Part shown: positions 2,260 through 64,000 of the stretch, piece after piece
Position numbering within the stretch: position 1 is the first letter of the stretch
Layout of the letters: each line of letters begins with the position of its first letter
Source: Tridacna crocea
Lineage: Eukaryota; Mollusca; Bivalvia; Cardiida; Cardiidae
Assembly (NCBI GenBank): GCA_943736015.1
Contig: OX031065.1
Coordinates: forward strand, 51,562,992-51,626,991
Direction: 5' to 3'
Length of the DNA stretch: 64,000 nucleotides
Made by a program: the position numbers and the translations under genes
The notes under the pieces: model-generated
The model's input: the letters and a program-made list of their open reading frames with translations, nothing else
What the model was told of the DNA's origin: nothing
Database searches by the model: none

Positions 2260-5070
2260 CACACTGATCAACGTGAGCCGCGGACACCATGTGTTCTCGG
2301 TACACCAGATCGAATTTTTCATGGAAGAACCGGAGGTGGTGTAAGTATTTTCATTTTCATGGACCTGATTAACCTAGATAGAGATGCTGATTTACAGCAA
2401 TGTCAAGACGAATGATTGATCTGTTTACACACATACTAGGGAATAATAATACCATCATATAAGCGAGCTGTGGCTTTATGAGCAACTGGGTCTTATTGTT
2501 TTGAAGTTTGTTGCCGATTTTCGGACAAAATCCCCTAACCATTGTTCATTTTACAAGTTTGTATGATAAGATAAATGTATTCCCTAGAGGAACACAAAAT
2601 TTCGCTTATAAATGTCCATCCAAAGCGAATATATAAATTTTTGAATGGACCTGGGTAGAGGAAAAAATGCTAACAAGACACCATTTTCATTTTCAGAGTA
2701 TGTACATGGACACCAGATCAGAAAAAGCTTGTGGTAACTGGACACAACCTTTAAATCATCAATATTTCTGCCTGAAACTCGATGCATGGGCTGTATACGA
2801 CGACTATTTTTGTAAACATTATGTCACTACGGTCCATTAATTGATAAAGAGCATGTTCAACGCAATTTTATTACTTGTAGCACTTGCTTTTTTGAAATAT
2901 TTGCAATAATGCGGCAATTTACGAAGTAGACCTACGATGCTTGATCACAATTGACCGGTCATTGCCTCCAATGTTGGTGCAAGACATGTTCTTCTTTTTT
3001 ATAGCGTTTCAGTTTTATGAATGGCGTATTAACCCATTACCACGCAATCACGAGCTTTAACGCCCTGGGAAAGATGGCTTCGAAAAACATTGTCTATAAA
3101 GAAAAACCCCTATTAACTAATACAGAGTGTACATTATTTACCACATTTGGCCTGATTCTTAGTTTAAATAATTTTCAAATCCGCTTGGCCAACTGCCAGC
3201 GGGCTCTTAGAATGGCGTTCTACCCTTCGTACATTTGCATGCGTGCGTTTGTTCGTCTACGCGTTTATTTCTAACATTTTTATTTGATTGACTTCTCCTC
3301 AGAAACCACCGAGTGGAAATCAACAAAATTCAACGTGGATGATTCCATAAATTTCTTTCGAGATACTTCGATCCTTTAAAAAAGATGGCTTATGTGGAAG
3401 GAGCTTATTTTTCCGTGTACGGCGCGTTGTGAAAATTGTAAAATTTGTCCTCCCAAAAGAACTCAATCACGAGATTGGCATTGGATAGCTTTCTATCACA
3501 TTCCTTCAATAAATTTTGATATGCTGAAAAACATGGCTTTTGTTGGTGGGACTTATTTTCTCTTTGTGTCATAAAGCGGAAGTACTTGCAGCTCTTTAAA
3601 TAAATTCATTAGTAATACATGTATGTAGATCTACATGTATTTCATAACACAGATGATCACTGATAATGTTTTATTTTGTCCAATATGCTGGAAACATTAT
3701 CAGTGATCATCTGTGTTATGAAATACATGTAGATCTACATACATGTATTATCAATGAATTTATTTAAAGAGCTGCAAGTACTTCCGCTTTATGTCACAAA
3801 GAGAAAATTAGTCCCACCAATAAAAGCCATGTTTTTCAAAAGCAGATCAAAATTTATTGAAGGAATGTGATAGAAAGCTACCCAATGCCAATCTCGTGAT
3901 TGAGTTCTTTTGAGAGGACAAATTTTACAATTTTCACAACGCGACGTACACGGAAAATAAGCTCCTTCCACATAAGCCATCTTTTTTAAAGGATCGAAGT
4001 ATCTCGAAAGAAATATATGGAATCATCCACGTTGAATTTTGTTGATTTCCACTCGGTGGTTTCTGAGGAGAAGTCAATTAAATAAAAATGTTAGAAATAA
4101 ACGCGTAGACGAACAAACGCACGCATGCAGATGTACGAAGGTTAGAACACCATTCTAAGAGCCCGCTGGCAGTCGGCCAAGCGGATTTGAAAATTATTTA
4201 AACTAAGAATCAGGCCAAATGTGGTAAATAATGTACACTCTGTATTAGTTAATAGGGGTTTTTCTTTATAGACAATGTTTTTCGAAGCCATCTTTCCCAG
4301 GGCATTAAAGCTCGTGATTGCGTGGTAATGGGTTAATATGCCATTCATAAAACTGAAACGCTGTAAAAAAAAGAACATGTCTTGCACAAACATTGGAGGC
4401 AATGACCGGTCAATTGTGATCAAGCATCGTAGGTCTACTTCGTAAATTGCCGCATCATTGCAAATATTTCAAAAAAGCAAGTGCTACAAGTAATGAAATT
4501 GCGTTGTACATGCTCTTTATCAGGTAATGGACCGTAGTGACATTATGTTTACAAAAACAGTCTTCGTATACAGCCCATGCATCGAGTTTCAGGCAGAGAT
4601 ATTGATGATTTAAAGGTTGGTGTCCAGTTACCACAAGCTTTTTCTGATCTGGTGTCCATGTACATGCTCTGAAAATGAAAATGGTGTCTTGTTAGCATAT
4701 TTTCCTCTACCCAGGTCCATTCAAAAACGTATATTTTCGCTTTGGATGGAAATTTCTGAGTGAAATTTTGTGTTCCTCTAGGGAATACATTTATCTTATC
4801 ATACAAACTTGTAAAATGAACAATGGTTAGGGGATTTTGTCCGAAAATCGGCAACAAACTTCAAAACAATAAGACCCAGTTGCTCATAAAACCACAGCTC
4901 GCTTATATGGTGGTATTATTATTCCCTAAGTGTGTAAACAGATCAATCATTCGTCTTGACATTGCTGTAAATCAACATTTCTATCTAGGTTAATCAGGTC
5001 CATAAAAATGAAAATACACCACCTCCGGTTCTTCCATGGAAAATTCTCACGGCTCACGTTGATCAGTGTG
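2260..5070. mobile_element. Giant palindromic (foldback) transposon, copy 1, with 5-bp TSD
   Basis: The element is an almost complete inverted repeat. The left arm (about 2260-3675) reappears reverse-complemented as the right arm (about 3695-5070), separated by only about 20 bases near 3675-3695. The ends read CACACTGATCAACGTGAGCC and its complement. TTAAC flanks both sides (2255-2259 and 5071-5075), so the element moved as a unit and made a 5-bp target duplication. The arms differ by scattered substitutions and small indels. No transposase is visible, so it is non-autonomous. It sits in the B4GALT intron. A second copy with a different 5-bp duplication lies at 26703-29899. Confidence 0.9.
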
Positions 5071-7001: not shown

Positions 7002-8753
7002 AACAAGAGGGCCAAGATGGCCCTGAATTTTTTTTTGAGGTATTGAAACTTCGGAGAAAAAAATCATTATTTTGCCAAACAATTTTGCAAAGGTCACCTG
7101 TAAAAATCATTTCAAAATCTGTCACCACCCCTACAGTCATCATCACAGCAATGATTTCGAAGAATCAGAATTCTGCAAATAAATTTTGGGATAGATCACC
7201 TAAGAACAATTTCTTGAAGAAGAGCACATGATAGTGACTAAAACACAAGTAGAACAAGACAAAGAACACTACATGCAGGTGCCAGCAATTGGCTACTGTT
7301 TTTCGACGAACAGAAATTTGAATAACAACTTTTGAAAAAGGTCGCCCGTGAAATTATTTCAAAATCTGACGAGCAGTTTCAGAGAAGAATAATTTTTTAG
7401 AAATTCCTCTTCATGTCGTTCCTGTAGTACAAATAGCCCCCACCATTAGAGCCATGCTTCTTGAAAGATCACAATTTTGTGAACAATTTTGAAAGAGTCA
7501 TCCAAGGACTCCCAGCGGTTTCAGAGAAGATGATTTTTTAAGAAATTTTTTTATGTTCTTATAGTGTAAACATCCCACAGCCATCAGAGCTATGTTTCTT
7601 AGTGGATCAAAATTTTCCGAACAATTTGCAGAATGGGTCACCCAAAAAACATTTCTGTGAAATCATTTTAAAATCTGACTAGTCCTTGCAGAAAAGAAGA
7701 ATTTTTAAGAATTTCTTCATGTTCATATTGCAAGTGTCTCCTCAAGTGTCTCCCCCCCTCAGAGTCATAGATCTTGAACAGTTTTTGAAAAGGGGTCACC
7801 TAAGGAACATTTCTGTAAAAGTATTTTAAAATCTAACCAGCGGTTTCAGAATAGAAGAATTTTTAAGAATCTCTTTATTTCCGTACAGTGCAAGTAGCCG
7901 CCATTTACCAGAGCCATGTTTCTTGACGGATCAAAATTTCACGTAGCTATCTTCAAAATGGTCATTCAGGGAACATTTCTGTGAAATTATTTTAAATTCT
8001 GACCAGCTGTTTAAAAGATGAAGAATTTTATGAGAATTTCCTCATTTTCGTATAGTGCAAGTAGCCACCCCTTCACCAGAACCATGTTTTATGACGGACC
8101 AAAATTTCGCGAGGAACGTTTGAACAAGGTCATCTAACAAACATGTCTGTGAAATTATTTCAGAATGTGACCATCAGTTTCAGAGAAGAAGAATTTTTAA
8201 GATTTTTTTTCATTTCTGTATAGTGCTAGTAGCCCCTATTCCCCAGAGCCATGTTTCTTGACGGATCAAAATTCCACGACCGATTTTTGGAAAGGGTAAC
8301 CGAAGAAACATATCTGTGGAATTATTTCCAAATCTGACCAACGGTTTCAGGGAAGAAGAATTTTTAAGAATTTCTTTATTTCTGTATAGTGCAAGTAGCC
8401 CCCATTCACCAGAGCCATGTTTCTCGATGGATCAAAATTTCCAGGCCAGTCTTTGAAAAGAGTCACCCTAGGAACATCTCTGTGAAATTATTTCAAATCT
8501 TAACTGCGGTTTCAGAGGAGAAAGTTTTTAAAGATTTTTTTAGAAAATTCCATGGCAACCAGAGGAATCAGATTCTGTGAATAGTCTTTAAGGAGGACCT
8601 CCTTAAGAACATTTCAGCCAAGTTTGGTCCAAATTGGCCAAGCGGTGTCGAGGAGTTGATGTTTAAAGAATTGTTGACGACGCAGGACAGACGATGGACA
8701 CGTGGTGATCCTAAAAACTCTCCTTGAGTACGTTGTGATCAGGTGAGCCAAAA
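7002..8753 (-). mobile_element. Type A tandem-cored element (Helentron/HINE-like), copy 1
   Basis: On the minus strand it begins with TTTTGGCTCACCTGATC (near 8753) and ends with GGCCATCTTGGCCCTCTTGTT-type sequence (7002-7022). The core is about eight diverged units of roughly 165 bp, each with GAAGAATTTTTAAGAATTT, a run about chemically neutral words such as CAGAGCCATGTTTCTTGA, and GGGTCACCCAAGGAACAT-like text. The near-end inverted repeats (GCTCACCTGA and CAGGTGAGC type), the 3' hairpin GGCCATCTTGGCC and the absence of a duplication follow the plan of non-autonomous Helentrons. It encodes nothing and sits in the B4GALT intron. The Helitron-class assignment is an inference from structure. Confidence 0.7.
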
Positions 8754-18304: not shown

Positions 18305-20062
18305 TTTTTAGCTCACCTGAGCACAACGTGCTCAAGGGGAGCTTTTAGGATCACCCGGTGTCCGTCGTCCGTCGTGCGTCGTCAACAATTCTTTAAACAT
18401 CAACTCCTCCTAAACCGCTGGGCCAATTTGCACCAAACTTGGCTGGAATGTTCCTTGGGAGGTCCTCTATAAAACTTGTTCACAGAATTTGATTCCATCA
18501 AAAACTCTGGTTGCCATGGCAACGAAATGGAATTTTTTTAGGAAATTCTTTAAAAATCTTCTTCCCTGAAACCGCTGGCCAGATTTTAAAATAATTTCAC
18601 AGAGATGTTCCTTGGGTGACCCTTTTCAAAAAGTGTTCGTGAAATTTTGATCCGTCAAGGAACATGGCTCTGGTGAATTGGGACTTCTTGCACTATACAG
18701 AAATGAGGAAATTCTTAAAAATTCTTCTTCTCTGAAACCGCTGGTCAGATTTTGGAAAATTTTCACAGAGATGTTCCTTGGGTGACCCTTTTCAAAAATG
18801 TTCGTGAAATTTTGATCCGTCAAGAAACATGGCTCTGGTGAATGGGGGCTACTTACACTATACAGAAATGAAGAAATTCTTAAAAATTCTTCTTCTCTGA
18901 AACCGCTGGCCAGATATTAAAAATAATTTCACAGAGATATTCCTTGGCTGACCCTTTTCAAAACTTGTTCGTGAAATTTTGATCCGTCAAGGAACATGGC
19001 TCTGGTGAATGGGGGCTTCTTGCACTATACAGAAATGAAGAAATTCTTCAAAATTCTTCTTTATTTTTTGTTGTTGTAATGTAAAGGGTCAAATGTACCG
19101 AAAGCATTAAACCCATTCAACATAAATAGATTCATCCAGATACGCCCAACCCCCATCACACTGAACACAAAATGGGAGGGGGGGGAACAGGTTTCATGAA
19201 AGTGAGAATTTCGTGCAGTTAACCTTGACAGCGCTGGTCAGATTTTGAAATAATTTCACAGAGATATTCCTTGGATGACGCTTTTCAAAATTTGTTTGTG
19301 AAATTTTGATCCGTCAAGAAACATGGCTCTGGTGAATGGGGGCTTCTTGCACTAGAGGGAAATGAAGGAATTCTTAAAAATTCTTCTTCTCTGAAACCGC
19401 TGGCCAGATTTTGAAATAATTTCACAGTGATGTTCCTTGGGTGACCCTTTTCAAAATTGTTCGTGAAATTTTGATTCGTCAAGAAACATGGCTCTGGTGA
19501 ATTGGGGCTTCTTGCACTATACAGAAGTGAAGAAATTCTTAAAAATTCTTCTTCTCTGAAACGGCTGGTCAGATTTTGGAAAATTTTCACAGAGATATTC
19601 CTTGGGTGACCCTTTTCAAAAATTGTTCGTGAAAGTTTTATTCGTCGAGAAACATTGCTCTGGTGAATGGGGGCTACTTGCATTACATGGAAATTAATAA
19701 ATTCTTGAAAATTCTTCTTCTCTGAAACGGCTGGTCAGATTTGAAAATTGTTTCACGGAAATATTCCTTAAATGACCTTTTCAAAATTTGTTTGAGAAAT
19801 TTTGATAGGTCAAGAAACATGGCTCTGGTGACTGGTGGCTACTTGCACTGTACGGAAATTATGAAACTCCTAAAAATTCTTCTTTTTTGAAACTGCTGGA
19901 CAGATTTTGAAAGGACTTTTACAGGTGACCTTTTAAAAATTGCCTGGCAAAATAATGATTTTCTTTCCAGTGTTTCAATACCTTAAAAAAAAAAAAAAAA
20001 AAAGGCTATGGTCCTCTCAAAAATTCAGGTGAGCGATCCTGGGCCATCTTGGCCCTCTTGTT
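18305..20062 (+). mobile_element. Type A tandem-cored element (Helentron/HINE-like), copy 2
   Basis: This is the clearest copy of the family. The 5' end is TTTTTAGCTCACCTGAGCAC with the hairpin GAGCACAACGTGCTC, then the GTCCGTCGTCCGTCGTGCGT stretch. The core is about eight units of roughly 165 bp with CTTCTCTGAAACCGCTGG and CATGGCTCTGGTGAATGG. The 3' end is CAGGTGAGC, a GGCCATCTTGGCC hairpin and CTCTTGTT. About 160 bp of unrelated DNA (19062-19225) sits inside the array. LINE text stops at its left edge and resumes at its right edge with no obvious duplication. Confidence 0.8.
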
Positions 20063-26702: not shown

Positions 26703-29700
26703 CACACTGATCAACGTGAGCCGCGGACACCATGTGTTCTCGGTACACCAGATCGGATTTTCCATGGAAGAACCGGAGGTGGTGTAAGTATTTTCATTTT
26801 TATGGACCCGATTTACCGAGATAGAAATGTTGATTTACAGCAATGTCAAGACAAATGATTGATCTGTTTACATACATACTAGGGAATAATAATACCATCA
26901 TCTAAGCGAGCTGTGGCTTTATGAGCAACTGCGGTCTGATTGTTTTGAAGTTTATTGCCGAATTTTGGACAAAATCCCAAACCATTGTTCATTTTACAAG
27001 TTTGTATGGTAAGATAAATGTATTCCCTAAATGAACACAAAATTTCACTTAGAAATGTCCATCCAAAGCGAAGATATACGCTTTTGAATGGACCTGGGTA
27101 GAGGAAAATATGCTAACAAGACACCAATTTTATTTTCAATGTATGCACATGGACACCAGATCAGGAAACGCTTGCGGTAACTGGACACCAACCTTTAAAT
27201 CATCAATATTTCTGCCTGAAACTCGATGCATGGGCTGTATACGAAGACTATTTTTGTAAACATTGTCACTACGGTCCATTACCTGATAAAGAGCATGTTC
27301 AACCCAATTTCATTACTTCTAGCACTTGCTTTTTTGAAATATTTGCAATATTACGGCAATTTACGAAGTAGACCTACGATGCATGATCACAATTGACAGG
27401 TCATTGCCTCCAATGTTGGTGCAAGACATGTTCCTTGTTTACAGCGTTTCAGTTTTATGAATAGCGTATTAACGCATTACCACGCAATCACAAGCTTTAA
27501 TGTCCCTGGGAAAGATGGCTTAGAAAAAAAATGTCCATTAAGAAAAACCCTATTAACTAATACAGTGTGTACATTATTTAACACGTTTGTCCTGATTCTT
27601 AGCTTAAATATTTTTCAAATTCGCTTGGCCAACTGTTAGAACGGCTTTGTACCCTGCATACATTTACATGCACATGCGTTTGTTCGTCTACGTGTTTATT
27701 TCTAAAATTTTCATTTAATAGACTTCTCTTCAGAAACCACCAAGTGGAAATCAACAAAAATCAACGTGGGTGATTCCATAAATTTCTTTCGAGATACTTC
27801 GATCCTTTAAAAAACATGGCTTATGTGGAAGAAGCTTATTTTCCGTGTACGGCGCGTTGTGAAAATTGTAAAATCTGTCCTCTCTAAAGAATTCAATCAC
27901 GAGATTGGCATTGGGTAGTTTTCTATCACACTCCTTCAATAAATTTTGATCTGTTGAAAAACATGGCTTTTGTTGGTGGGGCTTATTTTCTCTTAGTGTC
28001 ATAAAGCGGAAATACTTGCAGCTCTTTAAATTCATTGATGATAAATGTATGTAGATGTATTTAATAACACAGATGATCTCTGATGTTTCATTTTATCCAA
28101 CATGCTGGGTGATCATGATATATGAGATATTAATCTTTATTGTTACAAACTTACATAGTTCTAGTAAATGCAGCATTATAGTGCTGAGATATAGTTACAG
28201 TTAAACCTATATTAATCAATTACCAAAGGGACGGTCAAAAGAGCTTGCCAAAGGCAGGTGCTTGCTTGATATAGATGAATCTCTGTGCAATGCTATTTGT
28301 CGGGAACTACATGTATGCTTGTTTATTTAGGTTGCTTACTTAATATAGGTGGCCAACATGCCAGGTTTTACTGTATTTACAGTGGTGGTTTTAAAATTCA
28401 GACTGCCAGAGAATTTGCTAATATCTTCGAGCGTAATTATTCTGATACACAGTCTGTTTCGTCATAGTTTTGTAAAAAAAGCGAAATTAAAAAAAAAAAA
28501 AAAAAAACGAAACAGGATATAGACGTGATTTATTTTTATAAATGACGAATTTCAGAAAAGATTTAATTTAGTAATTTGCCATTGCTGCAATTAACCTCTC
28601 TAATAATTTCCTAGCACACTACGTACCTTTGAGCAATATAAATTTAACCTGATTCTGTTCCCTCTTTTTATCCATGCAGAAATCTTTAGTTGGTTCTAGA
28701 GCATCAAAGGGGTAGTATCAAACTAAAAGTGAAAATTTTTCAAGTGAAAAAAATGTCAGTAATCAAGTTGCTGAGAAATTTCAAAAACAAACTCACCTCT
28801 TTACCAGTACTCGAATGTTTACAAATATGTCTATATGTGTTATGCATTACCTTGAAGATAATTAATTTTCATAGTCCCATTCGGCATGTAGCGTGTTCTA
28901 CCAAAAAAGTTTTTAATACCATCAAGAATGAAAGAACTGAACATTTTCGGTGTATGTACAATCTAACGTCAAAGCCGTCAATCCAACGAATACATACGTT
29001 GGCAAGTGTGACCAATTCTTGAACTCATGAACACGAATTACAAATTCGTTGGATTAGTTAATAGGGACAATGTTTTCTAAGCCATCTTTCCCAAGTACAT
29101 TATAGCTCGTAATTGCCTGGTAATGGGTTGATACGACATTCATAAAACTGAAACGCTGTAAACAAGGAACATGTCTTGCACCAACATTCGAGGCAATGAC
29201 CTGTCAATTGTGATCAAGCATCGTAGGTCTACTTCGTAAATTGCCGTAATATTGCAAATACTTCAAAAAAGCAAGTGCTAGAAGTAATGAAATTGGGTTG
29301 AACATGCTCTTTATCAGGTAATGGACCGTAGTGACATAATTTTTACAAAAATAGTCTTCGTATACAGCCCAAGCATCGAGTTTCAGGCAGAAATATTGAT
29401 GATTTAAAGGTTGGTGTCCAGTTACCGCAAGCGGTTTCTGATCTGGTGTCCATGTGCATACATTGAAAATAAAATTGGTGTCTTGTTAGCATATTTTCCT
29501 CTACCCAGGTCCATTCAAAAGCGTATATCTTTGCTTTGGATGGACATTTCTCAGTGAAATTTTGTGTTCATTTAGGTAATACATTTATCTTATCATACAA
29601 ACTTGTAAAATGAACAATGGTTTGGGATTTTGTCCAAAATTCGGCGATAAACTCCAAAACAATAAGACCCCAGTTGCTCATAAAGCCACAGCTCGCTTAA

Positions 29701-29899
29701 ATGATGGTATTATTATACCCTAGTATGTATGTAAACAGATCAATCATTCGTCTTGACATTGCTGTAAATCAACATTTCTATCTATGTAAATCAGGTCCAT
29801 AAAAATGAAAATACTTACACCACCTCCGGTTCTTCCATGGAAAATCCGATCTGGTGTACCGAGAACACATGGTGTCCGCGGCTCACTTTGATCAGTGTG
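26703..29899. mobile_element. Giant palindromic transposon, copy 2, with 5-bp TSD
   Basis: Same family as 2260-5070: ends CACACTGATCAACGTGAGCC and TGATCAGTGTG, with GATTA on both sides (26698-26702 and 29900-29904). The left arm is complete to about 28110. The right arm has only its outer 850 bp (about 29050-29899). About 930 bp of unrelated DNA (28120-29050) replaces the inner right arm, so this copy is no longer a perfect hairpin. It landed in a LINE, whose reading stops and resumes at its edges. Confidence 0.88.
28120..29050. other. Unrelated filler inside palindromic transposon copy 2
   Basis: It has no counterpart in copy 1. It holds an A-run near 28490-28506 and a short unrecognised plus-strand frame at 28690-29022. 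Origin unknown. Confidence 0.45.
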
Positions 29900-29904
29900 G
29901 ATTA

Positions 29905-32137: not shown

Positions 32138-32168
<31 letters not shown>

Positions 32169-32512
32169 CATTTCCGTATAGTGCAAGTAGCCCCCATTCA
32201 ACAGAGCCAGGTCTCTTGACATCAAAATTTCATGAACAATTTTGGAAAAGGGAAACCCAAGGAACATTTCCGTGAAATTATTTTAAATCTGACCAGCAGT
32301 TTCAGAGTGGAAGAATTTTCAAGAATTTCTTCATTTCCGTTCAGTGCAAGTAGCCATCATTCACCAGAGCCATGTTTCTTACGGGGTTAAAATCGCCTAC
32401 AATTTTTAAAAAGGGTCACCCAAGGAACATCTCTGTGAAATGATTTCAAAATATTATGAGCAGTTTCAGAGGTGAAGATTTTTAAAGAATTTCCTGGCAA
32501 CTAGGGTTTTGG
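31383..32512 (-). mobile_element. Type A tandem-cored element, copy 3, ends missing
   Basis: About six units of the 165-bp core. Its left part (31390-31560) follows the same unit-specific text as 7063-7230, so copies 1 and 3 descend from one internally rearranged parent. A T-run fills 32141-32168. Neither terminus is present. Confidence 0.75.
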
Positions 32513-36316: not shown

Positions 36317-36320
36317 TTAA

Positions 36321-38471
36321 TGACGTTTGGTATAAATGTTCACGCGCATCCATACTGCGCATGTGTATTTCTCACAGGTAGTAAAACTCTCAGCGCTATT
36401 GTTTATTTTTCACTCAAATGGCAATAGTAACGGTGGACCGACGGTGCACTTTTACAAGTAGAAAATTCTACGGATGCTACTAGTACGGTTGCACCAGCCA
36501 TGGTATTCTATGGTTGAAATGAAGTGGGGAAGCTTTCATCAAAACAAAAGCTTATTTGTCGTGAAAAATGGAAACTGTCAGCCATCCAACGGGGAAAACG
36601 ATACAGCTTCTTACATTTTCCTGACAATGGCAGGCCAGTTGTCATGCTATCCTTTCAGGAATAAGGTGATAGCATCAAAACTGGCCTGCCAGTGTAAGGA
36701 TGATATGGCTGGTAAAGAACTAGCTGGAAAAAAAGTCCAGTTACACAATGAAACAGGCAGAAAATTGAAGCTGTTGAAGTATACCTATTTCTTGAAGTAT
36801 AGCTGTTTCCTTTTGAAAAATACTGTGGGAAAAGGAGAAAATTCTTCTACTGAATAACTTTTTCTTTTTCCATCATGTCTGCCGAGCTTTTATCTCTTTT
36901 TTCCACAGACATTTTTTTTTTCTATGAGCCTTATGGCCATAATCATGTATGCAAATTTGTAAAAAAATAACTACATGTAGCCAATGAAGGGTTTGATACG
37001 AATTTGAGGTATATGGGCTATGTTCATTTTTTTGAAGGAGTATAGGATCCAAAATTGATGTGGGAAAAGGAGAAATCACTTTTAATGAGCATGAGCAATT
37101 TTTTGTTTCCCTCTGTGTCTGCTGAGCTTCTATTATATAGTCTTCCTTAGAAAAAATAACTTCAAACGTGACATTCATCCCTGTTTCCTGGGGAAAGAAG
37201 CACGGGTAGGTGCCATTCTTATTTTTTCTTATTGCCAAGATTTATAAGTACTATGATTGTGGAAATTAAAAAAAAAATCTGTCCGTTAGAAAGTATGTTT
37301 TTATTGAAGATTAACCCTTAACCCGGTCAAATTATCTCACTTTTTACTCAATGGTCTATATATAAAATGCATATTGGTACATTTACCATGCTCAGAACCA
37401 GGCTTAATCTTGCTTTTTGTGCAAAACTGAATTATTTTTCTTTAAAGTGATGTATATTTCTATATTCTTCTGGTAATTTTCCTGTTTAATTGACTATTAA
37501 TGGAAAGTGTGTTAAATCCAGTATATGCTGAATTTTGGAACTGTATATACCTTTTTCAAAAGTGAATTTCTCGGAAACGAACACGGGGACCCCCCTTTTT
37601 TTTTCATTGTAATCTACAAGAGACATGATAAGCTTTGTATGTGCAAAGTTTAAAAAAAATCTTCCGTTGGAAGAATGTCATAAACGTCCTTAAAAGTTAT
37701 TTCTCCTTTTCCCACAACAATTTTGGATCCTATACTCCTTCAAAAAAATGAACATAGCCTATAATTTTTATACCTCAAATTCGTATCAAACCCTTCATTG
37801 GCTATATGTAGTTCTTTTTTTACAAATTTGCATACATGATTATGGCCATAAGGCTCATAGAAATACAAAAAAAAAAGAAATGTCTGTGGAAAAAAGAGAT
37901 AAATGCTCGGCAGACATGATGGAAAAAGAAAAAGTTATTCAGTAGAAGAATTTTCTCCTTTTCCCACAGTATTTTTTAAAAGGAAACAGCTATACTTCAA
38001 GAAATAGTTATACTTCAACAGCTTCAATTTTCTGCCTGTTTCATTGTGTAACTGGACTTTTTTTCCAGCTAGTTCTTTACCAGCCATATCATCCTTACAC
38101 TGGCAGGCCAGTTTTGATGCTATCACCTTATTCCTGAAAGGATAGCATGACAACTGGCCTGCCATTGTCAGGAAAATGTAAGAAGCTGTATCGTTTTCCC
38201 CGTTGGATGGCTGACAGTTTCCATTTTTCACGACAAATAAGCTTTTGTTTTGATGAAAGCTTCCCCACTTCATTTCAACCATAGAATACCATGGCTGGTG
38301 CAACCGTACTAGTAGCATCCGTAGAATGTTCTACTTGTAAAAGTGCACCGTCGGTCCACTGTTTCTATTGCCATTTGAGTGAAAAATACGCAATAGCGCT
38401 GAGAGTTTTACTACCTGTGAGAAATACACATGCGCAGTATGGATGCGCGTGAACATTTATACCAAACGTCA
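36321..38471. mobile_element. Third giant palindrome, TTAA-flanked
   Basis: The left arm (36321 to about 37095) reappears inverted at about 37690-38471. The termini are TGACGTTTGGTATAAATG and the complement, with TTAA at 36317-36320 and 38472-38475. The arms are very alike: a 127-codon frame lies in each (36474-36857 plus, 37935-38318 minus), differing at one residue. The arms also contain a nested hairpin (TGGCAGGCCAGTT and AACTGGCCTGCCA) and the GTGGGAAAAGGAGAAA core of the TTAA MITE. About 600 bp of spacer separates the arms. TTAA sites suggest a piggyBac- or Kolobok-like mobiliser; none is encoded here. Confidence 0.83.
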
Positions 38472-38475
38472 TTAA

Positions 38476-52346: not shown

Positions 52347-52985
52347 AATTTTTAACTCTACTGGCTGAACGCCAGCAGAGCTTATGCCATGGCGTGGTTT
52401 CCGTCGTCCGTCCGTCCGTTAGTCTTTTTCTTGTTCAGGCGACTAAGCCTGCACTTGTGGTCAGATTTCCATGAAATTTGCACAAATTGTTTATCTCATT
52501 AATACCTTCAATCCTATCGATGTTATGAAAAAATCTAACAAACAGTATGGGAAAAAGTAGCCATTTGAAGTTGAACATTTTATTTTGTTTACGCAATAAA
52601 GTCTGCACTTGAGGTCAGATTTTTGTTAAAGTTGCACAGCTTGTTTATCTCACTAATAGCTTCGACCCTATTGATTTTGAAAAAAAAATCCAATCAACAG
52701 TATGGGAAAAGTAGCCATTTCAAGTTGAAATTTTTCATTACTTGTTTACGTGTTAAAGTCTGCATTTGTGGTTATATTTTTGTGAAACTTGCACAGTTTA
52801 TTTATCTCATAAGTAGTCTAGCTTCTACCGTATTAATTTTGAAAAAAAAAAAAAAAAAAAAAAAAATCCAACAAACAGTATGGGAAAAGTAGCCTTTCAA
52901 GTTGAATTTTTGTCATTTCTTGTTTACGCAAATAAGTCTGCATTTGTTGTCAGATTTCAATGAAACTTGCAGAGTTTGTTTATTT
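52347..52985 (+). mobile_element. Type C tandem-cored element, 3' end missing
   Basis: It starts TTTTTAACTCTACTGGCTGA with the hairpin CTGGCTGAACGCCAG and the GTCCGTCCGTCCG stretch. Four core units of about 155-165 bp carry AAGTCTGCACTTGTGGTCAG and AACAGTATGGGAAAAGTAGC. An A-run at 52842-52866 lies in the third. The array stops without the usual 3' hairpin. Core units without either end recur at 61936-62200. Confidence 0.7.
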
Positions 52986-53575
52986 TATAATAATTGCACT
53001 CATGTTGTAAAATCGGTTTTTTGATTGGTCAGAATCTGGTCATGTGATGAAAAAACTTGCAAGTTATTTTTCGATGAACGCAATAGCACTACTTTCGGTT
53101 TTTCCAAATTGTTGTGTAGTATCTAATTTTAGATTTCATGCAAACTGTTTATGGGCTATATTTGGAGTTCCATTGTTGAATCAGACAAATGCAAAAAGAT
53201 CGATTTCTTTTTCTTTATAAAAACACTTGCAAAGAGGAAACTACCGAATTAACCTTGACAAAATGATGCGTGTTTATCTTTATATGATTGCACTCATGTT
53301 GTAAAATCGTGTTTTGATTGGTCAGAATCGGGTCATGTGATGAAAAAAACCTGCATGTTATTTTTCGATGAACGCAATAGTACTACTTTGGGTTTTTCCA
53401 AATTGTTGTGTAGTATCTAATTTTAGATTTCATGCAAACTGTTTATGGGCTATATTTAGAGTTCCATTGCTGAATCAGACAAATGCAAAAAGATCGATTT
53501 CTTTTTCTTTAAAAAACTTGAAAAGAGGAAACTACCGAATTAACCTTGACAAAACAATGTGTGTTTATCTTTATT
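52986..53575. repeat. Direct duplication, about 297 bp, two copies
   Basis: ATTGCACTCATGTTGTAAAA, GGTCATGTGATGAAAAAA, TCCAAATTGTTGTGTAGTAT and CTACCGAATTAACCTTGACA occur in both 52986-53282 and 53285-53575, with few differences. The second copy runs on into a repeat phrase also found at 60295-60365. Confidence 0.88.
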
Positions 53576-55211
53576 TGCACCCTAAAAATAAAAGATACAC
53601 TATGCCAACAGTGAATGGAGAGTATGAATGGTCGACGTCATCAGTTACCTTTTCACGCTAATTCTCGCACATGCGCGCAAGGACTTCCGGACGGCAACCG
53701 ATTATTTCCGCATTGTTTGTTTACATTGGTTACTCTCGAAAATGTCAATGCGGGAAAGTTTAAAAAAGATTGAATAAACAATCCGTGGTAATTTTAGCTA
53801 GAGAACACGGAATAGAAGTCAGGAAGAAAAAGAAAGATGACTTTACAAGTCAGATTTTAACGTCGTAGACTCCAGAATCTGTTCTCACCCCTGTTGTATA
53901 CCAAGAGTCCGAGCTGTACAATCATACCTCGGAGTGACCAAAACCTACCACCGTTCAACAAAGTAACCTATTCTGAGACTTGTCATGTACCGAAAATCAC
54001 TTTTAATGACATTTGTAATTTCATGATATTGCGTCCTACGGTGTCTGGTGGTCACGTCAACAACTTAAAAGGGCTAGATAGAGCCGTTAAGCACTTCAAA
54101 GCGCTCCGGCGATGTTAAGGATATTAGCTGTGCAAAGGTATGACTTGGACATTTTGTTATTTTCGTTTGTCTGAAATTTAAAGATAAAAGAGAGAGAAAA
54201 CTTTGCAGTAGCTGAGTAGACTGCATGCAAATCAAATTCTAGTTATCCTGTTATGATTAAAAATGAAATAAAACGTCAGGGTAACCAGATCTACCCTTCA
54301 AATGAGTATAATAGTTTCTCATAGATCTCAATAATTTGTGTGCATGTATGTCAGTGGCGTAGCTGAAGCCTAAATCACAGTATGCACATTTGAAGGGGTT
54401 AGGGAGTGAAGGGGGGTGTGAGGTGGGCAGTCCCTCTGAGGGAGACCTCAGGGAACGAAAATAAGGCAATATAGAGTTGATAAAAAAGGCTGTCCATGAC
54501 AATTTTTACACTCACACACACAAAGAAAAAACTGAGCAAGCAGATATCTGAGTGTGTGTCAGTAAAACAACTGATAAGTACTCTCACAGAATGTCTATCC
54601 ACAGAACAACATGGATCCTTTATGATGTCCTCCCCCGGGATGCCGACCTAGGCATCCTTGCAGGTCGTGTTTCTTGGAGGGGGGGCGTTGGATTTACCCT
54701 AAGCCTTGGTCCACAACCACTTGCCGTGCAGCCGATTTTGTGAATCCCTTGTTTACAAAGATGCAGAATATGTTATTCAGCAAAGAAAATGGTAAAATAA
54801 CAATACTGATACATTTTGCAATCAAAGCAAAACAGTTTAACCATCATTTTGGTATGGAGTGACCGTATGATTTGAGAAGTAAAAACAAATATAATTATGT
54901 ATGTTGATGCTAATTCTTCACCACCTGCAACATATCAGCCAGAGAATATTTTTCAAATAGGCTAAACAGTCTGAACAGTCTTTAGATTCTTATTAAATAA
55001 ATTTGGAAGCATTGTGACTAATAATATATCTCTTATATCAAACAATACTTCCTTTTATTCTTCTACAGAAAACAGTACAATGTCATTGACAGGAAATGAA
55101 TAATTCAAATTTAGTACAAAAATGATGAAAATTTTTATTATCTGAACTTACAAATAAGTTTCTTTGTAAGCACAGGGTGCATTTAAGTTTTTATTTTTTT
55201 TTTAAATTGTA
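53576..55211. other. Repeat-derived and anonymous DNA
   Basis: 53578-53650 (AAAAGATACACTATGCCAAC) recurs at 60300. 53655-53692 (GCACATGCGCGC, then CTTCCGGACGGCAACCG) recurs in reverse at about 59258-59292. Frames at 53894-54118 and 54257-54502 are not recognised. Confidence 0.45.
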
Positions 55212-55215
55212 CTTA

Positions 55216-55666
55216 TGTCACGGAGAGTGATTAGATATATAACCACTTGAAACCTGCCTTGCTGTTGAGCTAGCTTTTACAGCGATGCGGTTTGGTGTGT
55301 TTCTCTCTGTGACAGTTAAGCAACGTGGCATTAGGTTAGTGCCTGGATGGGTGACCAGGTCGTTGCACGTTACATTTGGTGTCAGAAGTGGGATAATGAC
55401 AACTGCCGGACTGGAGTTGCCTTACCCATGTATATTCCCCTGGTGTTTCTGTATATACATGCTTGTATATAGGTCTCGGGGTCGAGACTTCTCAAAGGCG
55501 GGAGTAATGTCACGGAGAGTGATTAGATATATAACCACTTGAAACCTGCCTTGCTGTTGAGCTAGCTTTTACAGCGATGCGGTTTGGTGTGTTTCTCTCT
55601 GTGACAGTTAAGCAACGTGGCATTAGGTTAGTGCCTGGATGGGTGACCAGGTCGTTGCACGTTACA
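55216..55666 (+). mobile_element. Cassandra-like TRIM: miniature LTR element with 5S-rRNA-like LTRs
   Basis: Two 159-bp direct repeats (55216-55374 and 55508-55666), beginning TGTCACGG and ending GTTACA, look identical by eye. They frame a 133-bp interior. Just inside the first repeat TGGTGTCAGAAGTGGGAT fits a primer-binding site for a leucine tRNA 3' end, and AAAGGCGGGAGTAA before the second repeat fits a polypurine tract. CTTA (or ACTTA) flanks both sides as target duplication. There is no coding sequence; it must borrow proteins from a full LTR element. Each repeat contains AGTTAAGCAACGTGGC, GGTTAGTGCC and TGGATGGGTGACC, close to the internal promoter region of 5S rRNA. The element looks whole and very young. 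Confidence 0.88.
55314..55358 (+). promoter_or_regulatory. 5S-rRNA-like internal promoter stretch in the left LTR
   Basis: AGTTAAGCAACGT and TGGATGGGTGACC with GGTTAGTG between correspond, in order and roughly in spacing, to box A, the intermediate element and box C of animal 5S genes. An ACCACTTGAAAC phrase about 70 bp upstream resembles the 5S 5' part. The same stretch is in the right repeat at 55606-55650. Pol III use is an inference. Confidence 0.8.
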
Positions 55667-55670
55667 CTTA

Positions 55671-56924: not shown

Positions 56925-58274
56925 TTCAAATAAAGTTGGAAAAGTTTGTGGCAAAGAAATATACATGTACTGTTCATAACCAGGATTGTCCACAATGCTT
57001 TTTAGCTCACTTGAGCACAAAGTGCTCAAGTTGAGCTATTGTGATTAGGCTGTGTCCGGCATCCGTCGTGTGTCAACGATTACTTGTTTGCACTCTAGAG
57101 GCTACATGATATCTCGGACAAGTTCAATATTGGGTCAAAAATTAGGTAACTAGGAAAAATTTAGAAAAACCCTGTATGTAATCTAGAGGCTATACATTTT
57201 TGGCTCAAATGTCTTTCAACTTGATCAGAACATTTGTCTCCATGAATATCTTGGACAAATTCAATATTGGGTCACATGTGGTCAAAAACTAGGTCACTAG
57301 GTCAAACCCTACAAAAACCATGTGTGCACTGTAGAGGCTACATTTTGGCTCAGATGTCTTCAAAGTTGGTCAGAATGTTTGTCCTAATGATATCTCGTAC
57401 AAGTTTGATATTGGGTCAACTAGAGTCATCAACTAGGTCTCAAGGTCAAATCTTAGAAAATCTTTTATGCACACTAGAGGCTACATTTGTGGCTAAAATG
57501 TATTGAAATTTGATCAAAATGTTTGTCACCATGATATCTTGGACAAGTTTGATATTGGGCCACAATGGGTAAAAAACTAGGTCACTAAGTCAAATCTTAG
57601 AAAACCCTTGTGTGCACTCTAGGGGATACATTTATACCGGGTCACATGGGGCCAAAAACTATGTCACTGGATCTTTTGAAAATTCAGGTGAGAGCTATAG
57701 GACCAATGGCCCTCTTCTTTTAAAATCCATATGCTATAGACACATTATGACTTATGCTGTGCAGTGGGGTGTGGAAAATGAAAGTAAAGCAAGGTCAAAG
57801 TATACTGATTTGAAACAAATCTTCAGGGAAAATTTCAAAGTAGAGGAAACAGGTTTGACATTATATGAAACTCATTCTTTCATAGAAGCATCCAGTTATG
57901 GTAGAGTAGCTGAAGATGGCTCTGTTGGTATACTTGAAATAAAGTGTCCATATCCTGTACAAGGGAAATTAATTAACAGGATGTAAGTTTTGGATATTGT
58001 TGCAATAAACAATACAGAATTCTGTCTTGCATCCAGCACAGAGGGTATAAGGCTGAAAAAGACCCATAAGTACTATGCTCAGGTACAGGGTGAGATGGCA
58101 GTCACGTGTTTACCATGGTGTGACTTTGTTATCTGGACAGCAGACCCTCAGAACAATATGTTTATTGACAGGGTTTACTTTGACACTGAATTTGTGAATT
58201 ACATGTTACCAAAACTGGTAGAGTTCTACGTTAAACGTGTTTTTCCTGCACTTGATTGTAATGTCAAACAATGA
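56925..58274 (+). pseudogene. YqaJ-type nuclease (viral recombinase family), interrupted
   Basis: The main part (57722-58274) contains YAVQWGVENESKARSKY, ILEIKCPYPVQGK, THKYYAQVQGEMAVT and WCDFVIWTADPQ. These match YqaJ/lambda-exonuclease-like proteins: the G-ENE-AR helix, the EIKCP catalytic strand and the YYAQVQGQM helix. A piece with TSNKVGKVCGKE near 56930-56965 matches the usual R-x-T-x-SN-GKV opening. The type D element at 56999-57718 separates these two parts. In animals such domains often belong to DNA transposons (for example ISL2EU) or stand alone. This copy is broken by the insertion and by a small number of other interruptions and is treated here as a fossil. Confidence 0.78.
56999..57718 (+). 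mobile_element. Type D tandem-cored element (Helentron/HINE-like)
   Basis: 5' end TTTTTAGCTCACTTGAGCAC with hairpin GAGCACAAAGTGCTC; 3' end TTCAGGTGAGAGCTATAGGA then CAATGGCCCTCTTCTT. The ends resemble type A, but the core is unrelated: about four units near 145 bp with TCTAGAGGCTACATTTTGGC, CTTGGACAAGTTTGATATTG and GGTCACTAGGTCAAA. It sits within the YqaJ-type gene with no clear duplication. Confidence 0.8.
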
Positions 58275-62639: not shown

Positions 62640-63380
62640 AGAATGCCCTTCTTCGCGTGTTGGAAGCGCTTTATAGACTATTGCGGTCCGAACCTTTGTG
62701 GGATCCGTGACAAGCCGTGGAGGAAACCCTACGTTTATATCATTTTCAGAGCAGTCACGTTTCTGACAACCGCGGACAACCGGATTGACGTATTCAGCGT
62801 GGAGGATCGGGAAACTTATGCTACGTTTACACTATGTTCCCGGCGGCCACGGCAATCACGTTTCAGGCCACCGTGGACAAAACGTGATGTACGTGAGACA
62901 ACGCGGGGGGACGGGATAGGCAAACGTGACAGGTCGTGATTGCCGTGGATGCCGGGCCAGATTTTTAAACTGTCAAAAAATTTTCCACGGCAATCACGGT
63001 GCGGATGAGAAACCTAGTAGGCCGCAGTAAAAAGGGGGTGAACGCAACAAAACGTTACAGGCCGTATCAGGCCGTAACAAAACGTGGAGGCGGTCCGTAG
63101 TGGGACGGGAAGCGTGTGTATCACCCGGCATCTCACGGTCCTTTCAGGTTTTGTCGCGTTCTGCCGCGTTTAGTCCGCGTTTTATCACGGTTGCTTCACG
63201 GCTGCTGCGTGTTTTGTCCCGTTTTGCAGCGTGTTGGCACGGTTCTCACGTCAGGCTATCATGGATGGTAGCCGTTTCGTCCCGTTCAATCAGGACGCGT
63301 CCCGGCGTGTGACGGTTACCGGCCCGGCGTGATACGGCGTGTTGCGTTCTGCTAGGGTCTGACACGGCGCGCGCGGTCTG
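62640..63380. other. GC-rich leader of the Harbinger-like element
   Basis: GC content rises sharply. Imperfect words such as CACGGCAATCACG, GGCCGTATCAGGCCGTAAC and GTTTTGTCCCGTTTTG recur on both strands. This is likely the subterminal region of the PIF/Harbinger derivative; a terminal inverted repeat was not identified. Confidence 0.5.
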
Positions 63381-63387
63381 GGAGGAA

Positions 63388-63398
63388 TATATAAAAGG
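63388..63398 (+). promoter_or_regulatory. TATA box of the MADF/Myb-like frame
   Basis: TATATAAAAGG lies 41 bases before the first ATG of the frame at 63439, a normal distance for a Pol II TATA promoter. Confidence 0.6.
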
Positions 63399-63438
63399 CG
63401 ATCCCGGTAATGGAGTTTCATTCAAGTATGAGCAATCG

Positions 63439-63756
63439 ATGGCACTGTATATACAAGCTATGCCACCGAAGAAGCAAAGACGCAAAGCCCCACGTGCTGC
63501 ACTACCACCACCATCTGATGGTCCTCGCCGTTCACCGCCGCCAGATGAAGAGGAGCGTGCTGCTGCTACTGCTGACCCGATCCCCGAACTGGATCCTGAA
63601 CCTGAGGCTGAGGAGGCTGAAGAAGATGCACCTGCTGGGAAGAGGGTAGCCCCCAGGGTCGTCACCAACTTTTCGGAGGATGAGAAGGAGCTCATCATTG
63701 ACTTTCTCCAGCAGAATCCCAAGCTGTATTCCAAGTCCAAAGCTCCCACCGCATGA
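63439..63756 (+). CDS. MADF/Myb-like DNA-binding protein of a PIF/Harbinger element, truncated
   Basis: The frame opens [20 protein letters not shown], with an alternative start at 63460 (MPPKKQRR) that fits such proteins better. A basic leader and a proline/acid-rich stretch precede [20 protein letters not shown] and KLYSK. The ending ELIIDFL..NPKLYSK resembles the start of a MADF/SANT-like domain, the DNA-binding partner of Harbinger transposases. After KLYSK the frame runs into antisense nuclease sequence (about 63735) and stops, so the domain is cut short. A TATA box precedes it. The product, if made, would lack most of the binding fold. Confidence 0.7.
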
Positions 63757-64000
63757 GGCACATTCCACTTGTCTTCAAACTCCTGGGCAAGGGCTCTCCA
63801 CTCATCGGGCGTCATAGGAGCGGCGAACACTTCATTTTTGTAGGCTTCCACGATGGCTTTGTACACTTCTGGCACCATATGGCCGATTGCTGATTTACTG
63901 CACCGGAATGCATAGGAAAGTGACGAGTAATTGTCCCCAGTGGCCAGATGTCTCTAAGTCAGTGACAGCTTCAGTCCAGATGGTAGGGCAGAGCGGAACT
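63735..64000 (-). pseudogene. PIF/Harbinger nuclease (DDE transposase), N-terminal part
   Basis: The minus strand reads [20 protein letters not shown], then [16 protein letters not shown] and [20 protein letters not shown] followed by AVGALD. This is the well-kept stretch leading to the first catalytic Asp (W-x-FPH-x-GA-x-D) of Harbinger nucleases. One in-frame stop lies upstream in the LSLT.RHLATG segment. Just after GALD the text changes to antisense of the MADF frame, so the rest of the nuclease is deleted. The element has thus collapsed to the outer halves of its two opposed genes. Confidence 0.85.

What the first reader, a model, noticed from the sequence alone, without database searches (positions are those of the whole stretch)
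55216..55666. Cassandra-like miniature LTR element carrying 5S rRNA promoter sequence, in an animal-like genome
Seen: two apparently identical 159-bp terminal repeats, a tRNA-Leu-type primer-binding site, a purine tract, a short target duplication, and in each repeat a 45-bp stretch matching the 5S rRNA box A to box C region. Known: Cassandra TRIMs with 5S-derived LTRs are described from plants. I do not know of an established animal example and cannot search. Inference: either a convergent capture of the 5S promoter by an animal LTR lineage or a little-noticed animal family. Identical repeats point to very recent movement.
Basis: partly seen in the sequence, partly recalled or inferred. Interest (0 to 1): 0.92.

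Follow-up and report, generated by a model that had tools for sequence, protein, structure and literature searches.

The report
Ajax-like mini-retrotransposon with 5S promoter
A very young 451-base jumping element in what looks like an invertebrate genome carries the control region of the 5S ribosomal RNA gene in both of its ends, resembling the little-known Ajax elements described from ribbon worms in 2024.

Summary
55216-55666 is a complete 451-bp LTR retroelement without a long ORF: two identical 159-bp TG...CA repeats, an 18-nt tRNA-Leu primer-binding site, a short interrupted purine tract, and a CTTA target duplication (4 bp; 5-bp ACTTA is also possible). Each LTR carries 5S box A, IE and box C in native spacing, not a whole 5S gene. 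New here: TATATAA at about -29 from the 5S-equivalent start, where bivalve 5S genes carry theirs, and the element's only T4 run just after that start, so a Pol III transcript would have roughly 15-nt terminal repeats, as in Cassandra.

Animal examples are already published: Kojima (2024) described Ajax from two nemerteans (421/434 bp, partial 5S in the LTRs, tRNA-Leu primer). This element fits that group, except for an ambiguous TSD length and a descent I could not test. It is not plant Cassandra. Its primer site matches that of bivalve Steamer-type Gypsy elements, candidate helpers. The host was not identified; flanking repeats look bivalve-like to me (recalled). If so, this extends the group to a second phylum. 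No genome was available to look for more copies; Pol III use is inferred.

The parts
55212..55215 (.). left target-site duplication CTTA (5-bp reading: 55211-55215 ACTTA)
55216..55374 (+). 5' LTR, 159 bp, TGT...ACA
   Evidence: 159 of 159 identical to the 3' LTR
55236..55242 (+). TATATAA, begins 29 bp upstream of the 5S-equivalent start (LTR position 21 against 50)
   Evidence: bivalve (Donax) 5S genes have a TATA-like motif at about -28 (PMC6204057)
55275..55278 (+). TTTT, LTR positions 60-63, possible Pol III stop (not used in the 5' LTR under the model)
55314..55326 (+). 5S box A-like AGTTAAGCAACGT
55334..55340 (+). 5S intermediate element-like GGTTAGT
55345..55356 (+). 5S box C-like GGATGGGTGACC
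55377..55394 (+). primer-binding site, 18 nt, tRNA-Leu(CAA) type
55473..55488 (+). hairpin GTCTCG-GGGT-CGAGAC in the internal region (role unknown)
   Evidence: folds
55494..55504 (+). short purine tract with one C, candidate PPT
   Evidence: sequence
55508..55666 (+). 3' LTR, 159 bp
55567..55570 (+). TTTT in the 3' LTR, predicted transcript end
55606..55648 (+). second copy of box A, IE and box C
55264..55570 (+). predicted RNA, 307 nt, with about 15-nt terminal repeats (inferred)
   Evidence: -111.2 kcal/mol, z -3.83, 0 of 100 shuffles fold as well
55667..55670 (.). right target-site duplication CTTA

Best explanation
A recently inserted, non-autonomous LTR retroelement (TRIM) whose LTRs carry a 5S-type RNA polymerase III promoter, of the kind named Ajax / TRIMp3. 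TFIIIA and TFIIIC would bind box A, IE and box C, and TFIIIB would sit at the TATATAA about 29 bp upstream of the start. Transcription would begin near LTR position 49-50, pass the first T4 run because it lies too close to the start, and end at the T4 run of the 3' LTR: an RNA of about 307 nt with terminal repeats of about 15 nt. A tRNA-Leu primes reverse transcription, the short R repeats allow strand transfer, and the promoter, lying downstream of the start and so inside the RNA, is copied with it. Gag, RT and integrase come from an autonomous Ty3/Gypsy element; a tRNA-Leu-primed Steamer-type element is the best candidate. Shown: anatomy, 5S core, PBS, LTR identity. Inferred: polymerase, transcript ends, helper.
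For: Identical LTRs, PBS and flanking duplication. 5S core beyond shuffles, with the exact 18-nt gap between box A and box C of the Cassandra consensus. Mismatches to a recalled lophotrochozoan-type 5S core (35 of 45) fall in spacers and edges, not in box A or box C. TATATA at -32 to -26 occurs in 9 of 20000 shuffles of LTR 1-98 and in 56 of 9129 window segments; Donax 5S genes carry it at about -28 (PMC6204057, passages). No AATAAA or ATTAAA in the element. Ajax has the same 5S part, the same primer tRNA and nearly the same length (PMC10886601). Cassandra is reported to start in the 5S part of the 5' LTR and stop in that of the 3' LTR, with 18-bp end repeats. Steamer elements share PBS TGGTGTCAGAAG (PMC8905726, passages).
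Against: No expression data. One copy only, so conservation of the boxes cannot be tested. Absence of further T4 runs between the two is unremarkable (582 of 2000 shuffles), and the TATA and T4 placement was noticed after the fact. Four Ts may be a weak stop in this host. Steamer LTR ends and PBS spacing differ (TGTAACA start, PBS immediately after the LTR, against TGTCACG and a 2-base gap here), and a Steamer-like element of Mytilus chilensis uses another tRNA (PMC11046912). No helper was seen in the window.
Confidence: 0.72

Rival explanations
1. An ordinary Pol II TRIM: TATATAA drives Pol II from about the same start, and the 5S core is a passenger left by a SINE3-type insertion into an ancestral LTR.
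For: A TATA box at this place suits Pol II too; Cassandra-related TRIMs without 5S carry TATA boxes for Pol II (PMC10853983, passages). Kojima suggests SINE3 insertion as the origin of the Ajax 5S part.
Against: Box A, IE and box C are preserved with native spacing while the spacer between box A and IE has diverged. No AATAAA or ATTAAA in the element.
Confidence: 0.2
2. A plant Cassandra that entered this genome by horizontal transfer or contamination.
For: Same architecture and a 22 of 25 fit to the Cassandra box consensus.
Against: Different PBS (TGGTATCAGAGC in Cassandra); 451 bp against 565-860 bp; 5S core closer to recalled fly and human than to recalled Arabidopsis 5S.
Confidence: 0.02
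3. The host is a nemertean and this is simply a further copy or subfamily of published Ajax (a rival on novelty, not on mechanism).
For: Size, 5S part and primer tRNA agree with Ajax.
Against: Flanking repeats look bivalve-like to me, by recall only; 451 bp against 421 and 434 bp.
Confidence: 0.25
4. A duplication made by the assembly, with chance 5S resemblance.
For: The repeats are identical and only one such element lies in the window.
Against: PBS, target duplication and TG...CA ends sit where an LTR element needs them; 5S match beyond shuffles.
Confidence: 0.02

Closest known systems
Ajax (Ajax-1_NGe, Ajax-1_LiLo; Kojima 2024, PMC10886601)
   Same: TRIM; only the box A-IE-box C part of 5S, inside the LTR; tRNA-Leu primer; length 421/434 bp against 451 bp
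Cassandra (plants; PMC7215508, PMC10853983, passages)
   Same: 5S promoter in the LTRs, TRIM, exact 18-nt gap between box A and box C, short terminal repeats on the RNA (predicted here)
   Different: PBS TGGTATCAGAGC, 565-860 bp, plants; independent origin from Ajax according to Kojima
Helenus (Kojima 2024), including molluscan families
   Same: TRIM with a small-RNA promoter in the LTR; animal Helenus makes 4-bp TSDs
   Different: tRNA-derived promoter; bivalve Helenus primers listed are Lys, His, Ile, Pro, Glu and Ser, not Leu
biv-TRIM (PMC6934838)
   Same: TRIM of bivalves
   Different: 202-218 bp repeats, 77-80 bp inner domain, PPT GGGGAGA, no unambiguous PBS; the parts read (1-2 of 5) mention no 5S part
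Steamer-clade Gypsy (PMC8905726, passages)
   Same: tRNA-Leu PBS TGGTGTCAGAAG; LTRs of 153-219 bp
   Different: autonomous, with gag-pol; LTR ends TGTAACA...TTAAACA; PBS directly after the LTR

Membership tests
TRIM | under 1000 bp, two LTRs, PBS and PPT, no mobilisation proteins | tested here: met
   451 bp; LTRs and PBS clear, PPT weak; none of the 12 ORFs of at least 120 aa overlaps it
Ajax | partial 5S sequence with box A, IE and box C inside the LTR | tested here: met
[quoted passage not shown]
   Ajax primer
Ajax | 5-bp target-site duplication | tested here: inconclusive
   CTTA with TG...CA ends, or ACTTA
Ajax | sequence relationship to the nemertean consensus sequences | not testable with these tools
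   consensus sequences lie in the supplement/Repbase; supplement look-ups are capped at 0
[quoted passage not shown]
   22 of 25 positions, gap exact
Cassandra | conserved PBS TGGTATCAGAGC | tested here: not met
   TGGTGTCAGAAGTGGGAT here
TRIMp3 | working Pol III promoter in the LTR | not testable with these tools
   needs RNA or in vitro data; the layout is consistent
Helenus | tRNA-derived sequence in the LTRs (box B GGTTC) | tested here: not met
   0 tRNAs by ARAGORN in the window, 0 Rfam matches in the LTR at E up to 10, no GGTTC in the LTR on the + strand (read); a very degenerate tRNA part is not excluded

The most novel reading that the evidence does not exclude
A bivalve (Mollusca) lineage of 5S-promoter TRIMs, outside nemerteans, that keeps the complete 5S promoter layout (TATA at about -29 plus box A, IE and box C) and is mobilised by Steamer-type Gypsy elements: either an independent third capture of the 5S promoter by an LTR element, or an Ajax lineage shared between phyla by descent or horizontal transfer, active very recently.
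Probability: 0.4. Interest if true: 0.55.

Novelty: new member of a known kind. Interest (0 to 1): 0.42.

Why it matters
5S-driven LTR elements are known from plants (Cassandra) and, since 2024, from two nemerteans (Ajax). A young copy in another animal group would show that this solution is more widespread. It also gives concrete tests of how a Pol III transcript can serve an LTR life cycle: TATA at about -29, a T4 run just after the start, terminal repeats of about 15 nt. The shared tRNA-Leu primer points to a testable helper; Kojima states that no autonomous helper of Cassandra is known.

Tried and rejected
Rfam searches at gathering and permissive thresholds gave nothing, so the LTR holds no recognisable 5S RNA structure. 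No other copy of the element lies in the window; besides the element itself and its two LTRs, one search shows four short rows (E 0.08 to 1). Pattern searches in viral contigs and prokaryote genomes found nothing; these collections are not expected to hold animal genomes, so this says nothing about copy number. One search used a wrong spacer (9 instead of 7 N) and is void; one search used the right one. A literature search for two LTR strings, one PBS string and two flanking-repeat strings found no paper; shorter PBS and tRNA strings found 14 papers, of which I looked at passages in 4. Pfam on 9 of the 12 ORFs found only a YqaJ domain, which does not identify the host. That no further T4 run lies between the two was tested and is not significant by itself (582 of 2000 shuffles). 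Cassandra membership was rejected on the PBS.

Full report
Observation. The stretch 55216-55666 is a complete small LTR retroelement. The two terminal repeats are identical over 159 of 159 bases. They start TGT, end ACA, and enclose 133 bp. Two bases after the 5' LTR stands TGGTGTCAGAAGTGGGAT, the only match in the 64 kb with up to 3 mismatches (mean 0.07 expected). A tRNA fragment listed in PMC12025293 (passage) ends in its exact complement, CCA included. Its last 15 bases begin the reverse primers for tRNA-Leu-CAA-2-1 (PMC7555719, passage) and for a fly pre-tRNA-Leu, there labelled CAC (PMC11495624, passage). A short purine tract with one C precedes the 3' LTR. CTTA flanks both ends. Because the LTR ends in A and the left flank reads ACTTA, a 5-bp duplication cannot be excluded. 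None of the 12 ORFs of at least 120 aa overlaps the element. Identical LTRs point to a recent insertion.

5S similarity. The core lies at LTR positions 99-141: box A, seven bases, IE, four bases, box C. Local scores of the LTR against recalled human and fly 5S are reached by 0 of 2000 shuffles each; against recalled Arabidopsis 5S by 4 of 2000. Among 1598 tiles of the window (both strands) the four over the LTRs rank first for all three references, narrowly so for Arabidopsis (25 against 23). Gapless identity over 45 bases is 31, 32 and 29 (human, fly, Arabidopsis). The published Cassandra consensus (PMC7215508, passages) fits 22 of 25 positions with the exact 18-nt gap. The next best place in the window has 20, and the best of each of 20 shuffled windows, one strand each, is 19 or 20. 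Rfam gives no match: the element keeps the promoter, not the RNA.

Promoter geometry. With box A and box C in 5S register, the 5S start corresponds to LTR position 50. TATATAA begins at position 21, that is at -29. Passages of a study of Donax 5S genes (PMC6204057) report a TATA-like motif at around -28 (TATATA in two of four species, variants in the other two), box A at 50-64, IE at 67-72 and box C at 80-97. A TATATA falls at -32 to -26 in 9 of 20000 shuffles of LTR 1-98 and in 56 of 9129 window segments. I looked for it after seeing the sequence, so this is support, not proof. The only T4 runs of the element, on either strand, are at LTR positions 60-63 of both LTRs, just after the predicted start. 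Shuffles of the 288 bases between them lack TTTT in 582 of 2000 cases, so the absence is unremarkable by itself; the placement is what fits. The element has no AATAAA or ATTAAA on the + strand. The predicted RNA, 55264-55570, folds at -111.2 kcal/mol, z -3.83 against 100 shuffles. The palindrome AGCTAGCT present at both ends lets the ends pair, which may account for part of this.

How it most likely works. Pol III starts in the 5' LTR under the 5S-type promoter, reads through the first T4 run and stops at the second, giving terminal repeats of about 15 nt. Kojima's introduction gives 18 bp for Cassandra, so the scheme has a precedent. A tRNA-Leu primes reverse transcription, and an autonomous Gypsy element supplies the proteins. 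Steamer is a candidate helper clade: passages of PMC8905726 give PBS TGGTGTCAGAAG directly after the LTR, and LTRs of 153-219 bp beginning TGTAACA and ending near TTAAACA in bivalves. The ends and the PBS spacing differ from those here, so this is a lead. A Steamer-like element of Mytilus chilensis uses another tRNA (PMC11046912, passages). I saw no helper in the window, but did not search it for RT or integrase beyond Pfam on 9 ORFs.

Comparison. Kojima 2024 (PMC10886601; outline, parts 1-4 of 6 and the figure/table section) describes Ajax by a partial 5S sequence with box A, IE and box C in the LTR, a tRNA-Leu primer, 421 or 434 bp and 5-bp TSDs, in Notospermus geniculatus and Lineus longissimus. 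The present element meets the promoter and primer features and is close in size (451 bp). The TSD is inconclusive and descent untestable here. By what it works like, it is an Ajax/Cassandra-type TRIMp3; by membership, it fits the descriptive definition of Ajax, and fails Cassandra on the PBS. Literature searches: for Ajax with TRIM, 5S rRNA and retrotransposon from 2023 on, only PMC10886601 among the 20 listed of 112 papers holds the word Ajax; of 6 papers holding the string TRIMp3 only that one concerns retroelements. Searches pairing Cassandra, 5S, TRIM or LTR with animal, mollusc or bivalve terms listed 20 of 241, 15 of 24 and 10 of 12 papers; no title or abstract start listed there reports a molluscan 5S-LTR element. 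The listings are partial, and subscription papers and Repbase are not covered.

Host. No genome is held for the window and no tool named the organism. The repeats around 57000-57700 and the tandem arrays at 7512, 18542 and 32163 look to me like those of bivalve genomes; this is recall, not a test. If the host is a nemertean, the finding is a further Ajax copy or subfamily; if a bivalve, a new host phylum.

Verdict. A real, intact, recent element of a known but newly described class.

Noticed in passing
7512-8542, 18542-19912, 32163-32493: Three tandem arrays of a related unit of about 163-167 bp, in both orientations; reminiscent by recall of bivalve satellite-like repeats.
   Followed up: partly
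36317-37088 and 37687-38475: Inverted pair of about 789 bp, 96% identical, each arm with a near-identical 131-aa stop-to-stop ORF; the one tested (36462-36857) has no Pfam match.
   Followed up: partly
2260-5044, 26703-28108, 29066-29900: Dispersed repeat of up to about 1.4 kb, 90-96% identical, with matches in both orientations as in an element with long inverted arms.
   Followed up: no
57573-57986: ORF with a YqaJ-like recombinase domain (Pfam E 5e-07, residues 61-127), next to a 144-bp tandem repeat at 57132-57633.
   Followed up: partly
63246-63953: ORF whose start reads to me like a PIF/Harbinger transposase (recalled); Pfam found nothing at E up to 1. The region is GC-richer than the rest of the window.
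   Followed up: partly
52977-53574: Two tandem copies of a 294-bp unit, about 93% identical.
   Followed up: no
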